The position numbers were made by a program, and so were the translations under genes. From a virus, in the IMG/VR virus record IMGVR_UViG_3300033148_002826, positions 1 to 38,618 of that record: a stretch of DNA of 38,618 nt; one strand, given 5' to 3'. The notes beneath the pieces are model-generated. The model did no database searches and had not been told where the DNA came from. It was given only the letters and a program-made list of their open reading frames with translations. Below, one piece after another: positions 18,186 through 38,160 of this stretch (position 1 is the first letter of the stretch; each line of letters starts with the position of its first letter).

Positions 18186-19145
18186 ATGTTTTTACTAGAT
18201 TTAATTAGAAAATGGTTTAAAAAAGAATACGGAACTGGACTTTTAGAAGATCCAATAGATTACAGGGACATATCAATGTCAGCAGTCAGTAAAAAGGAAT
18301 CCCCATTACCAGAGAGTTATACAATTCCTTATGTATTAGGAGTTAAAAAACAAGGTAGTGATCCAATATGTGTAGGTTGCTCAACATCTAGTTTAAAAGA
18401 AAACAAGGAACGAATAGAAGGAAACTTTATAGATTTTGATGCTTGGTGGTTGTATTCTGAATGTAAGAAGTCAGATGGTATGCCAGATTACCCAGGTACA
18501 TACTTTCGTAGTGGTCTTAAAGTCCTTCAGAAGATAGGTTGTAAGCCAGTAGACGGCGTTGTAAGCGATGAATATCGCATAGGTGGATATATCAGGGTCC
18601 CTTGTGATTACAAGAGCTTAAAACGGGCAATTTACGAATTTGGCGGAGTTCTTATAGGTTTTAAAGGAAGCAACAAAGGTTGGAAGTCAGCATATATACG
18701 ACCTCCTAAATCAGGGGAACATCAGTGGGGTCATGCTGTTTATGCTGTAGGATATGATAAAGAATATATAACTATACAAAATTCATGGGGCAAACATTGG
18801 GGTAAAAAAGGATACGGATATTTTAATGAAAAGTATTTACCTTTTTCGGCGTGGGCAATAGTTAATGATCTTCCTAATAATTGGAAAGAGCTACTTAAAA
18901 AACCAGAGAAACCAAAATATGAATTCATTAATAATCTTTACAAAGGATTACAGAATGAAGAAGTAAAGATTTTACAAGATTGTCTTAATTATCTTGGATG
19001 TATGAATTATAAAAGCACAGGATATTTTGGATCATTAACTTTTCAGGCTGTAAAAAACTTTCAAATAAGATATAATATATTTCCTCGTAGTGGTTTTGTC
19101 GGACCACTAACAAGGGAAAAATTAAATAATCAATTTAACAAATAA
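18186..19145 (+). CDS. Papain-like peptidase lysin with PG-binding domain
   Basis: 319 residues. Residues about 40-228 form a papain-fold (C1) cysteine peptidase: oxyanion Gln56 in KKQGSDPICVGCSTSS, catalytic Cys65, His183 in QWGHAVYAVGYD, and Asn199 in the IQNSWG motif. Residues about 250-319 are a peptidoglycan-binding type 1 domain (LYKGLQNEEVKILQDCLNYL, GYFGSLTFQAVKNFQ, GPLTREKLN). This combination suggests an endolysin that cuts peptide cross-links in peptidoglycan. There is no signal peptide; the basic N-terminus (LIRKWFKKEY) is amphipathic. It is followed 2 bases later by a holin-like gene. The start has the AAATAATAATATG leader and no Shine-Dalgarno. Confidence 0.8.
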   Translation: MFLLDLIRKWFKKEYGTGLLEDPIDYRDISMSAVSKKESPLPESYTIPYVLGVKKQGSDPICVGCSTSSLKENKERIEGNFIDFDAWWLYSECKKSDGMPDYPGTYFRSGLKVLQKIGCKPVDGVVSDEYRIGGYIRVPCDYKSLKRAIYEFGGVLIGFKGSNKGWKSAYIRPPKSGEHQWGHAVYAVGYDKEYITIQNSWGKHWGKKGYGYFNEKYLPFSAWAIVNDLPNNWKELLKKPEKPKYEFINNLYKGLQNEEVKILQDCLNYLGCMNYKSTGYFGSLTFQAVKNFQIRYNIFPRSGFVGPLTREKLNNQFNK

Positions 19146-19587: not shown

Positions 19588-20256
19588 ATGTATAAAAACA
19601 AAGAGAAAGAAAAACAGAACAAAAAAAAATGGTATCAAAAAAATAAAAAAAAGGTAAAAGAAAAAATTAAGAAATGGCGTTTAAAAAATAGAGAAAAACA
19701 TAATAAATATAATAGACAATGGTACCAAAAAAACAGAGAAAAAATACTTCAGAAACAGAGAAAATATCGTCAGGAAAATAAAGGAAAGATGAAGATATTT
19801 GATAGAAAACGATATCAAAAGAACAAAGAAAAAAAAATAAAGCAAGGAATAATATATGAAAAAAAACGAAGAGATACAGATCCGAAATATCGTTTAGATG
19901 ACAATGTTGGATCTTATATTCGTCATAGTTTAAAAGGTAAAAAAGCAGGTAAAAGGTGGAAAATTTTAGTAAATTTTACATTAGAAGATTTAATGAAACA
20001 TCTTGAAAGTCAATTTGATAAAAATATGTCTTGGGATAATTATGGTAATTATTGGGTGATTGATCACATAAAACCAAGAAGTTTATTTAATTATACAACC
20101 CCAGAAGATCAAGAATTTAAAGAGTGTTGGGCGTTGAATAATCTTCAGCCATTAGAAAAAATTGAGAATATTAAAAAATCTAATCATTTTGATGAGAAGG
20201 AAGAAGGCGAGAAAACGCCTGAAACTCCAGAGGGAGAAGAAGAAGAAGCTGAGTGA
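19588..20256 (+). CDS. HNH endonuclease with Lys-rich N-terminus
   Basis: 222 residues. Residues 1-95 are extremely Lys/Arg/Asn/Gln-rich with a repeated KWYQKN / QWYQKN / KRYQKN motif, a DNA-binding style array. The HNH domain lies about residues 130-200: WVIDHIKPRSLF, then CWALNNLQPLEKIENIKKSN, matching the DH..P..N.L.PL..N pattern. The C-terminus (EEGEKTPETPEGEEEEAE) is acidic and resembles the end of the protein at 19350. Free-standing HNH proteins of this kind are common mobile nucleases. It starts just after the terminator, so it has either its own promoter or read-through expression. Confidence 0.75.
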   Translation: MYKNKEKEKQNKKKWYQKNKKKVKEKIKKWRLKNREKHNKYNRQWYQKNREKILQKQRKYRQENKGKMKIFDRKRYQKNKEKKIKQGIIYEKKRRDTDPKYRLDDNVGSYIRHSLKGKKAGKRWKILVNFTLEDLMKHLESQFDKNMSWDNYGNYWVIDHIKPRSLFNYTTPEDQEFKECWALNNLQPLEKIENIKKSNHFDEKEEGEKTPETPEGEEEEAE

Positions 20257-20640
20257 GAAGACGATTATGGATCAATAGGTAATCCAGACGATTGGAAAAG
20301 CTCTCTCGGCTGTTAGGAGAGCTTTCGGAGAATTGATTTCTCCGTTGTGGGCAAGTGCTCTATATTGCCTACAACAGAGGAATTAGTCTTCTGTTCTGAG
20401 AAGGTTGAGTGCCACCAATGAATGTGGCTTTGGATAAGAGGTCGGCTCTTTTATCCGAGATATAACAATGGTTGAGAGTCCTACTAGTATTATGACTATC
20501 CTGTGATATTCATATACAAGGAGTAAGGTTTAAATGGATTAGCCCCCTACCATCTCCAAAAACACCTTCTTGGAACAGAGGAATTGAGTTTCCTCTTCTT
20601 GCAGTTAAACAAAAGCCCTTAACGGGGTTTTTGTTTTAGA
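20256..20640 (+). ncRNA. Large structured noncoding RNA, unknown class
   Basis: About 385 bases without a credible gene, more GC-rich than its surroundings and full of consecutive perfect hairpins: TGGAT/ATCCA (20268-20286), AAAGCTCTC/GAGAGCTTT (20297-20325), CGGAGAA/TTCTCCG (20326-20344), TTGTGGGCAA/TTGCCTACAA (20345-20374), CAGAGGA/TCTTCTG (20375-20393), GCCAC/GTGGC (20411-20428), GGATAAGAG with CTC and TTATCC (20432-20456), AGAGGAA/TTCCTCT (20577-20596). AGAAGAC (20256-20262) pairs with GTCTTCT (20386-20392), closing the first multibranched domain. ACAGAGGAATT occurs twice. The RNA ends in a strong terminator. Length and style recall large phage RNAs such as ROOL or GOLLD, but no class could be assigned. 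tmRNA and RNase P signatures were not found. Confidence 0.65.
20607..20637 (+). terminator. Rho-independent terminator
   Basis: AAACAAAAGCCC (20607-20618) pairs with GGGTTTTTGTTT (20625-20636), 12 pairs with one G-U, 6-base loop, T-rich 3' arm and A-rich 5' arm. It could end transcripts in both directions. It ends the structured RNA at 20256. Confidence 0.85.
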
Positions 20641-20648
20641 AAAGGTCA

Positions 20649-20672
20649 GCGGAATTTCCGCGGGGCTTTTTT
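20649..20672 (+). terminator. Second terminator-like hairpin
   Basis: GCGG/CCGC around AATTT (20649-20661), followed by GGGC and six T. It lies 12 bases after the first terminator and just before the promoter at 20681, so the two insulate the replication region from read-through. Confidence 0.6.
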
Positions 20673-20680
20673 ATTAACAC

Positions 20681-20709
20681 TTGACAGGGTTTAACAGGTG
20701 TTATAAAAT
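20681..20709 (+). promoter_or_regulatory. Sigma70-type promoter of the replication region
   Basis: TTGACA (20681-20686), 17-base spacer, TAAAAT (20704-20709). The spacer holds TAACA-GG-TGTTA, an inverted repeat that could be an operator. The -35 region with its flank (CTTGACAGGGT) is repeated at the promoter at 22591. Transcription would start near 20716, at the foot of the stem at 20718. Confidence 0.85.
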
Positions 20710-20717
20710 GAAGATAC

Positions 20718-20794
20718 CAGTGAAGACATTTATCGTTATTATATAATTTAGGATCTTAAATTATGCCCCCATGTCTTCACTGATGAGGGGGCGT
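20718..20794 (+). ncRNA. Leader RNA with pseudoknot-ordered stems
   Basis: CAGTGAAGACAT (20718-20729) pairs perfectly with ATGTCTTCACTG (20771-20782). GCCCCC (20765-20770) pairs with GGGGGC (20787-20792), extendable by an A-T and a G-U pair. The arms are interleaved 1-2-1'-2', with no base between arm 2 and arm 1', 4 bases between 1' and 2', and 35 between 1 and 2. It lies right at the predicted 5' end of the mRNA and 18 bases before the initiator start codon, so it is well placed to control translation, act as a riboswitch or protect the mRNA end. Confidence 0.7.
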
Positions 20795-20812
20795 TTCATT
20801 TATTATGATAAA

Positions 20813-21523
20813 ATGTCAAACCAAGGATATGTAAAACTTCATAGAAAACTACAAGATAACCCTCTTTATAAAAAATCAAGTTATCTACATATTTGGATAC
20901 ATTTATTATTATCTTGTAATCATAAAGAGAAAGAAATCATTTGGAATAAAGAACTAATAAAAATAAAGGGTGGGCAGTTTATTACATCAAGAATAAAGAT
21001 CGCTGAAAAAACTGGTGTTCCAGAAACAACAATAGAAGATATCCTTAATTTCTTTGAAAGCCAACAGCAAATCCGACAACAAAAAACTACCAAGTTTCGT
21101 GTAATTACCATTAAAAAATGGAGTGAATACCAAATAGAAGAAGATATTCCGACATCAAAACCGACAACAGAGCGACAACAGAGCGACAACAGAGCGACAC
21201 AAACAAGAATGAATAAGAATGAAAAGAATGATAAAGAAGAGAGTGTACTCTCCCCAAAAGAAACAATGATATTATTTTTAGAAAACGAAGATAACTTTTT
21301 AAAAGTAGTAGATCACATAGTAGAAAAGAAGAGCGTCCAAAAAGATATCGCTTTAAGAGAGCTTAAAAAGTTTAAAGCATACTGGTCAGAACCAAACGCT
21401 TCAGGAAAAAAACAACGCTGGGAGCTTCAGAAGACATTTGAATTAAGCCGAAGATTAACAACTTGGTTTAGTAAGGTAGATCAATTTAAAGGTCAAAAGA
21501 AAATTAAAGTAGGAATAATATAA
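20813..21523 (+). CDS. DnaD-like replication initiator
   Basis: 236 residues from the ATG at 20813; an earlier in-frame start at 20771 would begin inside the leader stem. The N-terminus (NQGYVKLHRKLQDNPLYKKS, then HIWIHLLLSCNHKEKE and GGQFITSRIKIAEKTGVPET) is the typical phage replication protein module with a winged helix-turn-helix. KFRVITIKKWSEYQ closes the domain. A Gln/Thr/Arg-rich linker (about 125-145) leads to a helical C-terminal domain. It would bind the origin and recruit host replication proteins; no phage polymerase or helicase is present. It is the first gene after the promoter at 20681. Confidence 0.7.
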   Translation: MSNQGYVKLHRKLQDNPLYKKSSYLHIWIHLLLSCNHKEKEIIWNKELIKIKGGQFITSRIKIAEKTGVPETTIEDILNFFESQQQIRQQKTTKFRVITIKKWSEYQIEEDIPTSKPTTERQQSDNRATQTRMNKNEKNDKEESVLSPKETMILFLENEDNFLKVVDHIVEKKSVQKDIALRELKKFKAYWSEPNASGKKQRWELQKTFELSRRLTTWFSKVDQFKGQKKIKVGII

Positions 21524-26101: not shown

Positions 26102-26872
26102 ATGAAAACATACACAATCAAAAAACCAAAAGACCTAGAAAAGTTCAAAGATGATTATGGATATAATGTAGATGGCAATCTTGAATTAGAATGTGGCATT
26201 GATATTGAGGGTAGATTAAGGGCAGATGGATATATATTGAGTAAAGCTGGATACTCTATTGAAGCTGGAGACTTCATTGAAGCTGGAGACTTCATTAAAG
26301 CTGAAGACTTCATTAAAGCTGGAGGCTCTATTGAAGCTGGAGGCTTCATTAAAGCTGGAGGCTCTATTGAAGCTGGAGACTTCATTGAAGCTGGATACTC
26401 TATTAAAGCTGGAGGCTCTATTAAAGCTGGAGGCTCTATTAAAGCTGGAGGCTCTATTGAAGCTGGAGGCTCTATTGAAGCTGGAGGCTCTATTGAAGCT
26501 GGAGACTTCATTAAAGCTGGATGCTCTATTGAAGCTGGAGACTCTATTAAAGCTGGAGACTTCATTGAAGCTGAAGGCTCTATTGAAGCTGGAGGCTCTA
26601 TTGAAGCTGGAGACTCCTGTGGAATATCAGCAGGACTATCAATTATTTGTAAAACAACTTTATCATTTGGTTTAAACGCATATGCTGGAATAAAAACTTG
26701 GGGAGAAGCAACAGATGAAGACAAAACAATAACTTGCGGAAAACTATTAAAAGGGAATATAGAATATGGTATTTTAAGAGAAACAGGATTATCAGATGAA
26801 CCAGAAACAGGCAAAAAAGTAAAGATTAAGCTAGATAATAATCAAGTCGTAGAGGGAATAATAATAAAATAA
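26102..26872 (+). CDS. Hexapeptide-repeat left-handed solenoid protein
   Basis: 256 residues. Residues 52-171 are 20 tandem hexads of the type S/F-I-E/K-A-G-G/D, fitting a left-handed parallel beta-helix (I at every sixth place, small A two places later). The N-terminal cap begins MKTYTIKKPKDLEKFKDD. The C-terminal region (SFGLNAYAGIKTWGEATDED) continues the solenoid irregularly and ends in a small beta domain. Such hexad proteins form trimers or filaments, as in bactofilin-like and acyltransferase folds, but no catalytic His is evident. The near-identical DNA repeats suggest recent expansion. Function unknown. Confidence 0.65.
   Translation: MKTYTIKKPKDLEKFKDDYGYNVDGNLELECGIDIEGRLRADGYILSKAGYSIEAGDFIEAGDFIKAEDFIKAGGSIEAGGFIKAGGSIEAGDFIEAGYSIKAGGSIKAGGSIKAGGSIEAGGSIEAGGSIEAGDFIKAGCSIEAGDSIKAGDFIEAEGSIEAGGSIEAGDSCGISAGLSIICKTTLSFGLNAYAGIKTWGEATDEDKTITCGKLLKGNIEYGILRETGLSDEPETGKKVKIKLDNNQVVEGIIIK
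26255..26614. repeat. 20 tandem 18-base repeats in the hexapeptide gene
   Basis: Units like TCTATTGAAGCTGGAGGC repeat about 20 times with few changes (TCT/TTC, GAA/AAA, GGC/GAC). Because 18 is divisible by 3 and the unit lacks stops, one other plus frame and one minus frame stay open through the array too. Such arrays change length easily by slippage. Confidence 0.95.
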
Positions 26873-27762: not shown

Positions 27763-28011
27763 ATGACACCAGAACAAAGATTTGATAAGAAGTTTGTAAA
27801 TCAAATAATTCACGGAGGGTTTGATAGCAATGAGATAAAACAATTCATCTTATCAGAAATAACCCTCGCAAGAAAAGAAGTATTAAAAGAAGTTAAATCA
27901 ATCTTCTTATCGGAAGCATTAGGAAGCAAGAGTAAATCTTGGGAACAAATAGAATCATCAATAAAGAGTAAGTATAATAAACTAACTAAAAATTATGTCA
28001 AAACAAATTGA
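27763..28011 (+). CDS. Helical hypothetical protein
   Basis: 82 residues, helical and charged (DSNEIKQFILSEITLARKEV, KSKSWEQIESSIKSKYNKL). It starts 1 base after the previous gene and overlaps the pentapeptide gene by 17 bases. No family recognised. Confidence 0.6.
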   Translation: MTPEQRFDKKFVNQIIHGGFDSNEIKQFILSEITLARKEVLKEVKSIFLSEALGSKSKSWEQIESSIKSKYNKLTKNYVKTN

Positions 28012-28477
28012 GGTTTCTGATGAAACTTGGGAAAAAATCAAAGATGTTGTTCAAAAAGAGGGCGACAAAGAAAAAAAGAAAGCTAAAATAGAAATAAAAA
28101 CAATAGGAGGTTCTTTATTGTGGGAAAGTGAAAAAGAAACTCTAAAAGAAGCAGTAGAAGAAGCTGTTAGTAAAGATGCTAATTTGAGAGGTGCTAATTT
28201 GAGAGGTGCTAATTTGAGAGGTACCAATTTGGGAGATGCTAATTTGGAAGGTGCTTATTTGGGAGATGTTAATTTGGAAGGTGCTAATTTGAGAGGTGCT
28301 AATTTGAGAGGTGCTAATTTGAGAGATGCTGATTTGGGAGGTACCAATTTGAGAGATGCTTATTTGGAAGGTGCTGATTTCTATCATACAAAGTTATACG
28401 GAAAAGGCGGAACAACAAAAATAACAAAAAAACAAATACCAGATTTCTTAATAGCATTAGGAGTAATAGTAGAATAG
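27995..28477 (+). CDS. Pentapeptide-repeat protein
   Basis: 160 residues. Residues 62-136 are about 15 tandem pentapeptides of A(N/D)LxG/D type (ANLRG, TNLGD, AYLEG), which fold as a right-handed square beta-helix. The first 60 residues (EIKTIGGSLLWESEKETLKE, AVEEAVSKDAN) are a common lead-in for phage and bacterial pentapeptide proteins. The C-terminus (KQIPDFLIALGVIVE) caps the helix. Some pentapeptide proteins mimic DNA and bind gyrase, but the size and surface here give no proof. It lies 1.1 kb after the hexad solenoid gene. Confidence 0.8.
   Translation: MSKQIEVSDETWEKIKDVVQKEGDKEKKKAKIEIKTIGGSLLWESEKETLKEAVEEAVSKDANLRGANLRGANLRGTNLGDANLEGAYLGDVNLEGANLRGANLRGANLRDADLGGTNLRDAYLEGADFYHTKLYGKGGTTKITKKQIPDFLIALGVIVE
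28178..28402. repeat. 15 tandem 15-base repeats in the pentapeptide gene
   Basis: Units like GCTAATTTGAGAGGT repeat with small changes (GGAGAT, GGAAGGT, ACCAATTTG). Several neighbouring units are identical, which points to recent expansion or homogenisation. The minus strand also stays open across the array. Confidence 0.95.
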
Positions 28478-32042: not shown

Positions 32043-32528
32043 ATGTCAGAAGAAACTACACAAGAAAAAGAGAATGATGTCAACGATAAAGCAGGGAGCA
32101 ATCAGGGAGAATATAAGGTAGGAGATAAAAAGCCACCTAAAGAACATCGGTTTAAAAAGGGTCAATCAGGAAACCCAAAAGGAAAGCCGAAAGGAACATT
32201 ATCAGTTGTAGCAGCACTTAAAAAGAAATTACAGGAAATACCAGACGATCCAAGTAATAAAGAAAGACGATCATATTTAGATATTCTTATTTTAAAGATA
32301 ATAAAGAAAGCAATAACTGGTGAAGATGTGGCAATGATAAAAGATATAATAGATAGAGTAGATGGAAAACCAAAGCAACCAATAGAAGCAGATATAAGTT
32401 TAACATCTCAGGCAAAAGAAGGCGCAGAAAAATTAAATGATTTAATAAATGACCTTACAGGAGAAACAAAAGAAACTAGCAAAGAATCTACTAAAGTTAT
32501 TCCAGATAGACGGGAAACCAGCAAATGA
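32043..32528 (+). CDS. terS: Terminase small subunit-like (DUF5681)
   Basis: 161 residues from the ATG at 32043; a GTG start at 32031 would add four residues. KKPPKEHRFKKGQSGNPKGK (about 29-48) is the hallmark of DUF5681 proteins encoded next to large terminases, followed by helical regions (SVVAALKKKLQEIP; DILILKIIKKAI) and a disordered, Thr/Ser/Glu-rich end. It would recognise the packaging site and load DNA onto the large subunit. It overlaps the large terminase frame by 80 bases in another frame, which is long for a phage. Confidence 0.7.
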   Translation: MSEETTQEKENDVNDKAGSNQGEYKVGDKKPPKEHRFKKGQSGNPKGKPKGTLSVVAALKKKLQEIPDDPSNKERRSYLDILILKIIKKAITGEDVAMIKDIIDRVDGKPKQPIEADISLTSQAKEGAEKLNDLINDLTGETKETSKESTKVIPDRRETSK

Positions 32529-34830
32529 AGCAATAACAGAAGGTCAGTTAGATATATTTAGTTCATTGATATTTAGAAACAAGAATAGAGTTCAGATTAT
32601 AACTTCTACTCAATATGGAAAGCTAATAGCTAATGATGTTCCAGTTTGGACTAATAAAGGATGGAAAAAACATGGAGAATTAAAAGTAGGAGATTATGTT
32701 TTTAACCATTTAGGAAAAAGAGTCAAAATAATAGTAATAGGAGAAAAGCAGTTTGCTAATAAAGAAGTAATTTTTACAAATGGAGAAAAGATAAAATGTC
32801 ATGAAAATCATGAATGGATTGTTTGGAATGAAAATTGGGATGAATATAAAGTGATTCAAACCAATGAGATAGAAAAATATAAAATAATAATGTCAATTCC
32901 TAAGGTTAAACCCTTAGAAGGAAAAGGAGAATTAGACATTGATCCATATTTTTTAGGAGCTTGGTTGGGAGATGGAACATCAAAAAAGCCATCAATAACA
33001 ATACATCCAAATGATAAAGACATTATTGATAGAATACCATATAAATTATCAGCAGTTCATATTCATAAAATAACAGGAATAAAAACATTTGAATTTTACA
33101 AAAATGGATTATTAGACAGATTAAGAGAGAATAATTTATATAATAATAAGCACATTCCATTAAAATATAAGTTAGCTTCGTTGAAAGATAGATTGGAATT
33201 ATTAGCTGGTTTAATAGATACTGATGGATCGGTTAATAAGGATTATAGAGAAAAAGGATGGAAAAATGGTAGAGTATATATAATAAATACTAATAAAATT
33301 TTAATTGATGATGTTAGAGATATAATTCACGGACTGGGGATAAGAACAAGCATAACAAAAGTTAAAGCGTGTAAATCATCAAGTGGAATACAAGGAAAAA
33401 AGGATGTATATTATTTAGGATTTCAACCCAACATAAATATACCAACAGTTCTTTTAAGAAAAAAAGTAAATTATAGAGAAAGTAAACGAAGTATTAGAAT
33501 TAAAGAAATAATAGACATAGAGTCAGAGAGTGGTAATTGTATTCAGGTTGAAGGGGGAATATATCTTGTAGGTAAGACAATGATTCCTACTCATAATTCT
33601 TTAATAACAGCATTAGCTTGTTTAGTAATCAGTTGTATTCAGAAAGAGTTAGTAGCAGTAGTAGCTCCTAACAAAGAAAAAGCAAAGATAATAATGCGAT
33701 ACTATATTGAGCATTTATCAGATAATCCTGTATTTTGGTCACAGCTTGAAAAGAATACAAAGCTTGAAAGATTAAGACAAGAGGAGAGCAAAGAGCGTAT
33801 TATACTAAACAACGAAGGAGGTATATTCGTTGTATCAGCTCAAGCAGGAAACGCTGTAAAAGGAGTAGAATCTGCTATGGGAGAAGGTGCTAAAATAGTT
33901 ATTCAAGATGAGAGTTGTTTAATCCCCGATCAGACAGAGTCTTCAATTTATCGTATGATTGCTGGATACAAAGATGGATTCTATTGTAAGATCGGAAACC
34001 CTTTTTATAGAAATCACTTTTTAAAGAGTTGGAGAAGTGAAAAGTATCAAAAGATATTTATTGATTATTTCCAAGGTTTAAAAGAAGGTAGATATACACA
34101 AGAGTTTATTGAAGAAGCAAAAAAGAAACCGAACTTTGATATATTATTTGGTTGTAAGTTCCCTGACGCAGATATGATAGATCAGAAAGGATATTCTGTA
34201 TTGTTAGCAGAAAGTGATATTAAACAAGGTGAAGTTAATCCTTTTGGAGAAATACGAATGGGAGTTGATGTAGCAGAAGGAGGAGGAAATTATAATGTAA
34301 TCGTTTTAAGATGGGATAATACAGCTAAAGTAGTTCTTAAATATCAATCAGAGAATACAATGGATTTAGTTGGTAGAATTATTCAGATCGGAAATGAATA
34401 CGATATTTTGCCAGATAACATTTTTGTAGATTCAATAGGAGTAGGAAAAGGAGTTTGTGATCGTTTAGAAGAAAATTATAATAAAAAAGTAAGAACAATT
34501 AACGGAGTTAAAGTATCAGAAAAAGCTCAAGATTCAAAGCTTTACTTTAATAAAAGAGCAGAGAATTACTGGAGATTAAGACAATGGATTAAACAAGGAG
34601 CGATATTAGAACCCAATAATGACTGGAATCAATTAGAAGACATTAAGTATAAAGTAAAAGATAGTTCAGGACAATTATTGATAATGCCCAAAGATGAAAT
34701 GAGGAAAGAAGGTTATGAGAGTCCTGATATTGCTGACGCTTTAATGCTTACATTTTCAAGAATAGACTTTTCAGGAGGTAAAGTAGTAACAAATAGAGTA
34801 AAACCTCCTTCAACTTATAAAAAACGCTGA
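32449..34830 (+). CDS. terL: Terminase large subunit, interrupted by an intein
   Basis: 793 residues, of which 325 (59-383) are an intein, leaving a 468-residue terminase, a normal length. The Walker A motif reads STQYGK at 53-58 and continues with S384 LITALACL after the intein. Walker B is AKIVIQDES. The C-terminal nuclease has MGVDVAEGGGNYNVIVLRWD, DNIFVDSIGVGKGVCDRL and YESPDIADALMLTF. It packages DNA into the prohead using ATP and cuts it. Without splicing the ATPase site would be broken, so protein splicing is required. The first 26 codons overlap the small subunit gene. Confidence 0.9.
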   Translation: MTLQEKQKKLAKNLLKLFQIDGKPANEAITEGQLDIFSSLIFRNKNRVQIITSTQYGKLIANDVPVWTNKGWKKHGELKVGDYVFNHLGKRVKIIVIGEKQFANKEVIFTNGEKIKCHENHEWIVWNENWDEYKVIQTNEIEKYKIIMSIPKVKPLEGKGELDIDPYFLGAWLGDGTSKKPSITIHPNDKDIIDRIPYKLSAVHIHKITGIKTFEFYKNGLLDRLRENNLYNNKHIPLKYKLASLKDRLELLAGLIDTDGSVNKDYREKGWKNGRVYIINTNKILIDDVRDIIHGLGIRTSITKVKACKSSSGIQGKKDVYYLGFQPNINIPTVLLRKKVNYRESKRSIRIKEIIDIESESGNCIQVEGGIYLVGKTMIPTHNSLITALACLVISCIQKELVAVVAPNKEKAKIIMRYYIEHLSDNPVFWSQLEKNTKLERLRQEESKERIILNNEGGIFVVSAQAGNAVKGVESAMGEGAKIVIQDESCLIPDQTESSIYRMIAGYKDGFYCKIGNPFYRNHFLKSWRSEKYQKIFIDYFQGLKEGRYTQEFIEEAKKKPNFDILFGCKFPDADMIDQKGYSVLLAESDIKQGEVNPFGEIRMGVDVAEGGGNYNVIVLRWDNTAKVVLKYQSENTMDLVGRIIQIGNEYDILPDNIFVDSIGVGKGVCDRLEENYNKKVRTINGVKVSEKAQDSKLYFNKRAENYWRLRQWIKQGAILEPNNDWNQLEDIKYKVKDSSGQLLIMPKDEMRKEGYESPDIADALMLTFSRIDFSGGKVVTNRVKPPSTYKKR
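32623..33597 (+). mobile_element. Class 3 intein with LAGLIDADG endonuclease
   Basis: 325 residues between K58 and S384 of the terminase. It begins LIANDVPVWTNKGWKKHGEL, with no Cys, Ser or Ala at position 1. Block B is KIKCHENHEWIV with Trp123; block F is NCIQVEGGIYLVG with Cys364; block G is IPTHN with Thr381, His382 and Asn383, then Ser384. This W-C-T triplet is the signature of class 3 inteins, where the block F Cys starts splicing. Two endonuclease motifs are present, YFLGAWLGDGT (167-177) and LLAGLIDTDGS (251-261), with intact acidic residues. It is probably an active homing element. Confidence 0.9.
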
Positions 34831-37316: not shown

Positions 37317-37678
37317 AACAATATATTACACAAGAGCAATACAATGTTCTCCGTTGGGAGCAAAAGTTAAAAATCCAAAAGTTATTTAAGATAAATCCAT
37401 CTGCTCAAAGAGAAATGGTTAATAATGAAGTCAAGTTTGATGGAGTAGTAGCTTACGATTTAGAAGTTATTAACATAGGTAATATGATAGAAGCTTTAGG
37501 AGATACTTGGGATAGTTATATTAAAAGCTACAAAGTAGATAATCTATGTGATCAGTTATGGGACGCTATTATTGAGATAACTTCTGAAGAAGTTAATACA
37601 ACAAAAGATGTAAAGATACCAGAAGAACCATTGCCAGAATCAGTAGAATTAGTAAAAACTAATGAAAGCAAAAAATGA
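37313..37678 (+). CDS. Hypothetical protein in the head cluster
   Basis: 121 residues, mixed helices (YITQEQYNVLRWEQKLKIQK, LEVINIGNMIEALGDTWDSY) and an acidic flexible tail (IPEEPLPESVELVKTNESKK). ATGA overlaps on both sides show tight coupling with neighbours. No family recognised; a head-assembly role is possible from position. Confidence 0.6.
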   Translation: MKQYITQEQYNVLRWEQKLKIQKLFKINPSAQREMVNNEVKFDGVVAYDLEVINIGNMIEALGDTWDSYIKSYKVDNLCDQLWDAIIEITSEEVNTTKDVKIPEEPLPESVELVKTNESKK

Positions 37679-38025
37679 AAAAGCTGAAAATTAAACTATT
37701 AAATTATATTATTAGACATCTGTTTAATGGTATAACGGAAAATGATGTATTAAGGAATTACAAGGGAAAGTTCTTTATCGGAAGACATGAAGTACCAGAA
37801 GTCAGAATTAAAGCAATGATAGCAGAAGCTAAAGCTATGCAGAAAACAGAGTTATGGGGCTTATTAATAAAAGACATGAAGTTATTGTCAAATCAGAAGA
37901 TGTATGAGCGTTCACAGACCGTAGATGACATGATATTCGGTAAAGCAATGTTGTTTATTACAGAGATATTAGACAAGAAAGTCAAGAACATATCAAATAT
38001 ACAAGATAAAGATTTAAAATACTAG
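37675..38025 (+). CDS. Hypothetical protein before the structured leader
   Basis: 116 residues, basic and helical (LKIKLLNYIIRHLFNGITEN, PEVRIKAMIAEAKAMQKTEL, KAMLFITEILDKKVKNI). Coupled to the previous gene by ATGA overlap. It is the last gene before the pseudoknot-like leader and terminator. In related gene orders a small helical protein between portal and scaffold is common, role unknown. Confidence 0.6.
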   Translation: MKKLKIKLLNYIIRHLFNGITENDVLRNYKGKFFIGRHEVPEVRIKAMIAEAKAMQKTELWGLLIKDMKLLSNQKMYERSQTVDDMIFGKAMLFITEILDKKVKNISNIQDKDLKY

Positions 38026-38051
38026 AATAAAATTAACAATTATGTTATAAA

Positions 38052-38130
38052 GTTAAGTCGCTGACCATGGGTGGTTGAATGTTGCCCCTGGTACTTACAA
38101 AGTTTTCAGCGACTTAACAGTACCAGGTGC
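38052..38130 (+). ncRNA. Pseudoknot-ordered RNA before the scaffold gene
   Basis: GTTAAGTCGCTGA (38052-38064) pairs perfectly, 13 bp, with TCAGCGACTTAAC (38106-38118). GCCCCTGGTACT (38084-38095), in the loop of that stem, pairs with AGTACCAGGTGC (38119-38130), 11 of 12. Arm order is 1-2-1'-2' with no base between 1' and 2', so the stems could stack end to end; loops are 19 and 10 bases. A terminator follows at 38138. Good candidate for a riboswitch, an antitermination site or a nuclease-resistant RNA; a DNA site is also possible. Confidence 0.8.
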
Positions 38131-38137
38131 GACATTG

Positions 38138-38160
38138 AGTCACTTATAGTGGCTTTTTTT
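38138..38160 (+). terminator. Rho-independent terminator before the scaffold gene
   Basis: AGTCACT (38138-38144) pairs with AGTGGCT (38148-38154) with a 3-base loop, followed by T6. It lies 33 bases before the scaffold start, directly after the pseudoknot-like RNA, so it either ends the packaging transcript or acts as an attenuator for the head genes. Confidence 0.8.

What the first reader, a model, noticed from the sequence alone, without database searches (positions are those of the whole stretch)
20256..20640. About 385-base highly structured RNA of unknown class between lysis and replication genes
At least eight consecutive, nearly perfect hairpins, a long-range stem closing the first domain, a repeated ACAGAGGAATT segment and a strong terminator, with no reading frame. 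It is GC-richer than its surroundings. This resembles the big ornate phage RNAs (ROOL, GOLLD, HEARO type) in style, but no known signature was seen, and it lies near a tRNA-like RNA as some of them do.
Basis: partly seen in the sequence, partly recalled or inferred. Interest (0 to 1): 0.72.

Follow-up and report, generated by a model that had tools for sequence, protein, structure and literature searches.

The report
Orphan structured RNA in a phage
A small-genome phage carries, after its cell-bursting genes, a roughly 345-base noncoding stretch that really is predicted to fold into an elaborate RNA, but no relative of it could be found anywhere, so its class and job remain unproven.

Summary
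Window 20257-20636 is noncoding. It is GC-richer (41%) than its neighbours (27% and 31%) and folds far better than dinucleotide shuffles (z about -5 to -7; 0 of 400 shuffles as stable). It contains about eight hairpins and an almost continuous 30-bp long-range helix (20376-20405/20564-20596); two terminators follow. The 12-nt repeat is explained: both copies lie in the arms of that helix. The long helices carry wobble pairs that hold only on the + strand, so this looks like a + strand RNA, not a DNA palindrome. The ROOL/GOLLD/HEARO comparison is style only: no Rfam family matches even at E 10, no tRNA, no IscB or Nop protein. No homologue was found in about 50 related phage contigs, phage or plasmid records, or 280 host-class genomes, so covariation is untestable and membership in any known class fails. 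HNH-gene relatives lack such an RNA. Best reading: a terminator-ended structured noncoding RNA from the 3' end of the late (lysis) transcript, with a predicted strand exchange; acting in trans is inferred. A purely cis 3'-UTR/insulator role is the main rival. Separately, a position-conserved structured RNA precedes the capsid genes in most relatives.

The parts
19588..20256 (+). stand-alone HNH endonuclease-like gene (222 aa, lysine-rich repeats, HNH, acidic tail) that ends directly before the RNA
20257..20600 (+). structured noncoding RNA body; 4-bp closing stem 20258-20261/20597-20600
   Evidence: MFE -120.8 kcal/mol, z -5 to -6
20262..20294 (+). hairpin P2 (two 5-bp segments)
   Evidence: pairing probability 0.80-0.86
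20297..20325 (+). hairpin h1, 9 bp AAAGCTCTC/GAGAGCTTT
20327..20343 (+). hairpin h2, 6 bp in the final fold; its 3' arm is predicted to pair with 20376-20386 in the nascent RNA
20344..20375 (+). hairpin h3, 11 bp, directly stacked on h2 and on the long helix
   Evidence: probability 0.98
20376..20405 (+). 5' arm of the 30-bp long-range helix P6; holds most of repeat copy 1 (AACAGAGGAATT 20373-20384)
   Evidence: probability 0.71-0.98
20411..20428 (+). hairpin P7, GCCAC/GTGGC
20429..20459 (+). hairpin P8, 13 bp, including 4 G-U pairs
20487..20517 (+). hairpin P9 (weaker, interrupted)
20520..20557 (+). hairpin P10 (weak)
20564..20596 (+). 3' arm of the long-range helix P6; holds repeat copy 2 (20574-20585)
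20607..20636 (+). terminator hairpin 1 (13 bp, U-rich 3' arm)
20637..20673 (+). terminator 2 (GCGGAA/TTCCGC stem, T6 tail)
20681..20709 (+). promoter-like TTGACA-17-TAAAAT for the next (early, DnaD-like) operon
   Evidence: 11 of 12 matches; number of promoter-like sites in the region is at chance level

Best explanation
The stretch encodes a + strand structured noncoding RNA of about 345-380 nt. Nearly every larger window gene lies on the + strand and no promoter-like site stands directly before it, so it is most likely the 3' end of the late transcript (tail, lysis, HNH). It is cut off by two terminators just before the early promoter, and released by termination and perhaps by RNase processing. 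While it is made, 20376-20386 first pairs backwards with 20331-20343 to form a 22-bp hairpin. When 20564-20596 emerges, that strand swaps into the 30-bp long-range helix, which frees h2 and closes the second domain. The finished molecule should be nuclease-resistant and accumulate late in infection, where it most likely acts as a structural or protein-binding RNA, working like (not belonging to) the other large phage RNAs. Shown: noncoding status, extreme predicted folding stability, strand preference, terminator-like hairpins, absence of known families and homologues in what was searched. Inferred: late transcription, processing, strand exchange in vivo, accumulation, and any action in trans.
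For: z -5 to -7, 0/400 shuffles as stable. Long helices of 9, 11, 18 and 13 bp with 8 G-U and no A-C positions on +; the minus strand keeps only one helix of 8 bp or more, and MFE goes from -120.8 to -103.7 kcal/mol. The longest uninterrupted helix (18 bp) was not reached in any of 400 shuffles. GC 0.41 in an AT-rich genome. No ORF. Two terminators, then a separate promoter-like site. Folding of growing transcripts shows the strand swap, and the long-range fold gains 19 kcal/mol over the best fold with spans up to 150 nt. A related phage, G284, carries about 1.3 kb of densely structured noncoding DNA directly downstream of its own endolysin.
Against: No homologue, so no covariation. No recognisable own promoter. 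No expression data. Strongly folded gaps are common in this phage group, so structure alone does not prove a trans role. Post-lysis gaps of other relatives (G281, G291, G314) are not comparably structured.
Confidence: 0.5

Rival explanations
1. Cis-acting 3' untranslated region only: the hairpins and twin terminators end the late transcript, protect its 3' end from exonucleases or present RNase III sites, and shield the early promoter. No separate RNA function.
For: Position at the late/early boundary, no own promoter, two terminators directly before the early promoter. G284 also has terminator-rich structure after its endolysin.
Against: A 344-nt body with a 30-bp long-range helix and two multibranch domains is far more than termination or end protection needs; several relatives have no such structure there.
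Confidence: 0.32
2. DNA-level element next to the DnaD-like helicase-loader gene, such as a replication origin whose single strand folds into hairpins.
For: Lies 130-200 bp before a DnaD-like loader gene.
Against: G-U pairs on the + strand only and a clearly weaker minus-strand fold point to RNA; higher, not lower, GC; no iteron-like direct repeats.
Confidence: 0.07
3. Diverged member or relic of a catalytic or guide RNA coupled to the upstream HNH gene (group I intron, HEARO/omega RNA, TIGR array).
For: HNH gene directly upstream; group I introns do occur in capsid genes of related phages.
Against: No Rfam hit to such families at E<=10, whereas the same kind of search found a sub-threshold intron at E 3e-10. 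No Nop protein. Nine HNH relatives have no structured RNA downstream. No interrupted gene seen.
Confidence: 0.04
4. No function: neutral inverted duplications of a short hairpin (three similar AGAGGAATT-type hairpins) that happen to fold well.
For: Orphan; the three hairpins at 20327, 20376 and 20576 resemble each other, so part of the structure may come from duplication.
Against: Unrelated hairpins (h1, h3, P7, P8) are equally good; GC and strand bias; gene-dense phage genome with little spare room.
Confidence: 0.07

Closest known systems
ROOL RNA
   Same: Large structured noncoding RNA of a phage, function unknown
   Different: No Rfam match; about half the length of the 659-nt ROOL in PMC12286853; no tRNA nearby
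GOLLD RNA
   Same: Phage location; GOLLD rises during lysis (PMC12286853) and this one sits behind the lysis genes
   Different: No Rfam match; under half of >800 nt; no tRNA; expression unknown
HEARO / omega RNA of IscB
   Same: A structured RNA next to an HNH gene
   Different: RNA is downstream of the gene; protein is a 222-aa stand-alone HNH with no match to solved structures, IscB included; no Rfam match; pairing not conserved
TIGR stem-loop arrays (PMC12045711)
   Same: Row of hairpins in a phage; TIGR systems occur in phages and CPR bacteria
   Different: No Nop/Tas protein in the genome bin and no repeating unit
3'UTR-derived bacterial small RNAs (own knowledge)
   Same: Inferred origin at a transcript 3' end with intrinsic terminator
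   Different: Usually under 150 nt and simpler; no expression shown here

Membership tests
ROOL | Match to the family covariance model | tested here: not met
   not listed at E<=10
ROOL | Length near 600-660 nt | tested here: not met
   about 345-380 nt
ROOL | Often near phage tRNA islands | tested here: not met
   ARAGORN 0 tRNAs, Rfam 0
ROOL | Forms an octameric cage | not testable with these tools
   needs cryo-EM or mass photometry
GOLLD | Match to the family covariance model | tested here: not met
GOLLD | Length mostly over 800 nt | tested here: not met
GOLLD | Expression rises during lysis | not testable with these tools
   no transcriptome
HEARO / omega RNA | Match to the family covariance model | tested here: not met
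HEARO / omega RNA | Neighbouring IscB (RuvC plus HNH) | tested here: not met
   222-aa HNH only; no Pfam hit, no PDB hit
TIGR-Tas | Nop-domain Tas protein | tested here: not met
   PF01798 absent from the genome bin including this contig; archaeal controls ring
TIGR-Tas | Tandem array of repeat-spacer units | tested here: not met
Group I intron | Match to RF00028 core | tested here: not met
   at E<=10; positive control in L021 at E 2.8e-10
New conserved structured RNA class | Homologues with covarying base pairs | tested here: inconclusive
   no homologue found

The most novel reading that the evidence does not exclude
The first seen member of an unnamed class of fast-evolving phage RNAs made at the end of the late transcript, which assemble or refold by a programmed strand exchange and act in trans late in infection, as ROOL and GOLLD may do.
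Probability: 0.15. Interest if true: 0.75.

Novelty: new member of a known kind. Interest (0 to 1): 0.42.

Why it matters
Large structured phage RNAs are few and mostly unexplained. A compact example in a 38.6-kb genome, with a clear predicted fold and a testable strand exchange, would be an easy subject for probing. The group of phages it belongs to also seems rich in structured RNAs, including one before the capsid genes whose position is conserved.

Tried and rejected
Rfam at gathering level and at E 10. BLASTN to phages and plasmids. DNA search in own genome and 55 relatives of the host (only itself plus chance hits). Relatives by terminase, DnaD, capsid, portal, Sak4, endolysin and HNH proteins, then nhmmer/blastn of the RNA against those fetched up to then. 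Paired-repeat DNA pattern in viral and genome collections (118 stretches, all chance). Single-sequence covariance models of both domains (weak hits at E 0.02-0.06 in two host-class genomes judged chance). HNH-coupled RNA. TIGR array. Group I intron. The weak L112:5347 hit was coding sequence. G299 and G291 post-lysis regions proved to hold small genes or little structure. Helix flushness was no more than shuffles give, so it was not used as evidence.

Full report
Setting. The window is one whole contig (38,618 bp) with a 114-bp direct terminal repeat, consistent with a complete circularly assembled phage genome. It is binned with a 1.2-Mb genome. The host is not established. Nearly all larger ORFs lie on the + strand. 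Around the finding the order is: papain-like/endolysin gene 18186-19145, a short holin-like and a short acidic ORF (read), HNH gene 19588-20256, the RNA, two terminators, a promoter-like site, and the DnaD-like helicase loader 20771-21523.

Observation. The 481-nt region folds with z -6.8, the body without terminators with z -5.1, and the body against 400 shuffles with z -6.0 and none as stable. In the 120-nt + strand scan of the window it has the lowest free energy per window. GC is 0.41 against 0.27 and 0.31 in the flanking genes. No ORF over 24 aa lies inside.

Anatomy. Folded from the first base after the HNH stop codon, the RNA has a short closing stem and a first multibranch domain with hairpins P2, h1, h2 and h3. 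A nearly continuous 30-bp helix (20376-20405 with 20564-20596) leads to a second multibranch domain with P7, P8, P9 and P10. That is why local hairpins and the long helix compete for the same strands. Growing transcripts are predicted to pair 20378 with 20341 until about 20585 and with 20594 from 20600 on. The long-range fold gains 19 kcal/mol over the best fold limited to 150-nt spans. This strand exchange is a prediction only.

Strand. The long helices on the + strand contain 8 G-U pairs among 51. The minus strand keeps only one helix of 8 bp or more and folds 17 kcal/mol less well. A DNA palindrome would not be expected to show this bias, so the + strand RNA is the likely functional form. 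The + strand search itself favours G-U, so this is supporting evidence, not proof.

Relatives. The portal protein defines a group of 47 viral contigs (best 51% identity) and Sak4 gives six more (59-67%). None that was examined carries the RNA by sequence or by single-sequence covariance models of either domain. Neither phage or plasmid records nor 280 genomes of the host class give a credible match. The RNA is an orphan, and covariation could not be tested. In one relative (G284) about 1.3 kb directly downstream of the endolysin is densely structured (z down to -7.9) with several independent hairpin clusters, one with a long closing helix over a multibranch loop. This is an analogue by position and style, not a homologue. 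G281, G291 and G314 do not show the same.

Known classes. ROOL, GOLLD, HEARO/omega RNA, TIGR arrays and group I introns were each tested on defining features and failed (membership table). The permissive Rfam search is informative, since the same kind of search found a sub-threshold group I intron in a relative. The upstream HNH gene has many relatives in phages; none of nine checked loci has a structured RNA behind it.

Explanation. The best-supported reading is a structured RNA from the 3' end of the late transcript, ended by twin terminators. Whether it acts in trans (preferred, because its architecture exceeds what termination needs) or only in cis is undecided; I put about 0.5 and 0.32 on these. 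It is a new orphan of a known broad kind, not a member of a named class. Interest is moderate because nothing beyond structure could be shown.

Noticed in passing
window 38041-38160; first 140 nt after the 37675-38025 homologue in 20 relatives (G281, G291, L016, L026, G304, L050, G308, G314 and others): A strongly folded RNA stands between this gene and the capsid/scaffold genes in most of 21 phages (mean z -4.65 against -0.86 for 80 other gaps, Mann-Whitney p 9e-9). Most sequences are too diverged to align. In about half a -10-like box stands before it and a T-run after it, and a GGGTG loop motif recurs by eye. Best Rfam score is far below gathering. The window copy has two interleaved helices (13 and about 18 bp), a possible pseudoknot or switch. 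This may be a more solid RNA family than the finding itself.
   Followed up: partly
window 20718-20795: Interleaved pairing CAGTGAAGACAT/ATGTCTTCACTG with GCCCCC/GGGGGC between promoter and likely start of the DnaD-like gene: a possible pseudoknot in its 5' leader.
   Followed up: no
No tRNA is called there.
   Followed up: partly
L073:14400-16300 (minus), relative G284: About 1.3-1.7 kb of noncoding, densely structured DNA right after the endolysin gene, with several terminators and an interleaved-helix element (GTTTCGATA / CAAAAATCCCCGTA); no Rfam hit.
   Followed up: partly
L021:5416-6207 (G281 capsid gene); also G291, and noncoding similarity in L023, G296, G299, G303: Major capsid genes of several relatives appear interrupted by a group I intron (RF00028 45.8 bits, E 2.8e-10, under the gathering score of 50).
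   Followed up: partly
window 32449-34830, residues about 58-384: The large terminase gene seems to contain an intein: the best phage matches lie only in this insert, which ends in HNS before the terminase resumes.
   Followed up: partly
window 26102-26872 and 27995-28477: Two repeat proteins: an 18-nt DNA repeat (beta-solenoid, FapA-like, just below the Pfam cut-off) and a 15/30-nt repeat that looks like pentapeptide repeats.
   Followed up: no
relative G280:31801-32300: Very stable, AT-rich stretch (400 nt at -166 kcal/mol, 28% GC) that looks like a near-perfect long inverted repeat; could be real or an assembly artefact.
   Followed up: no
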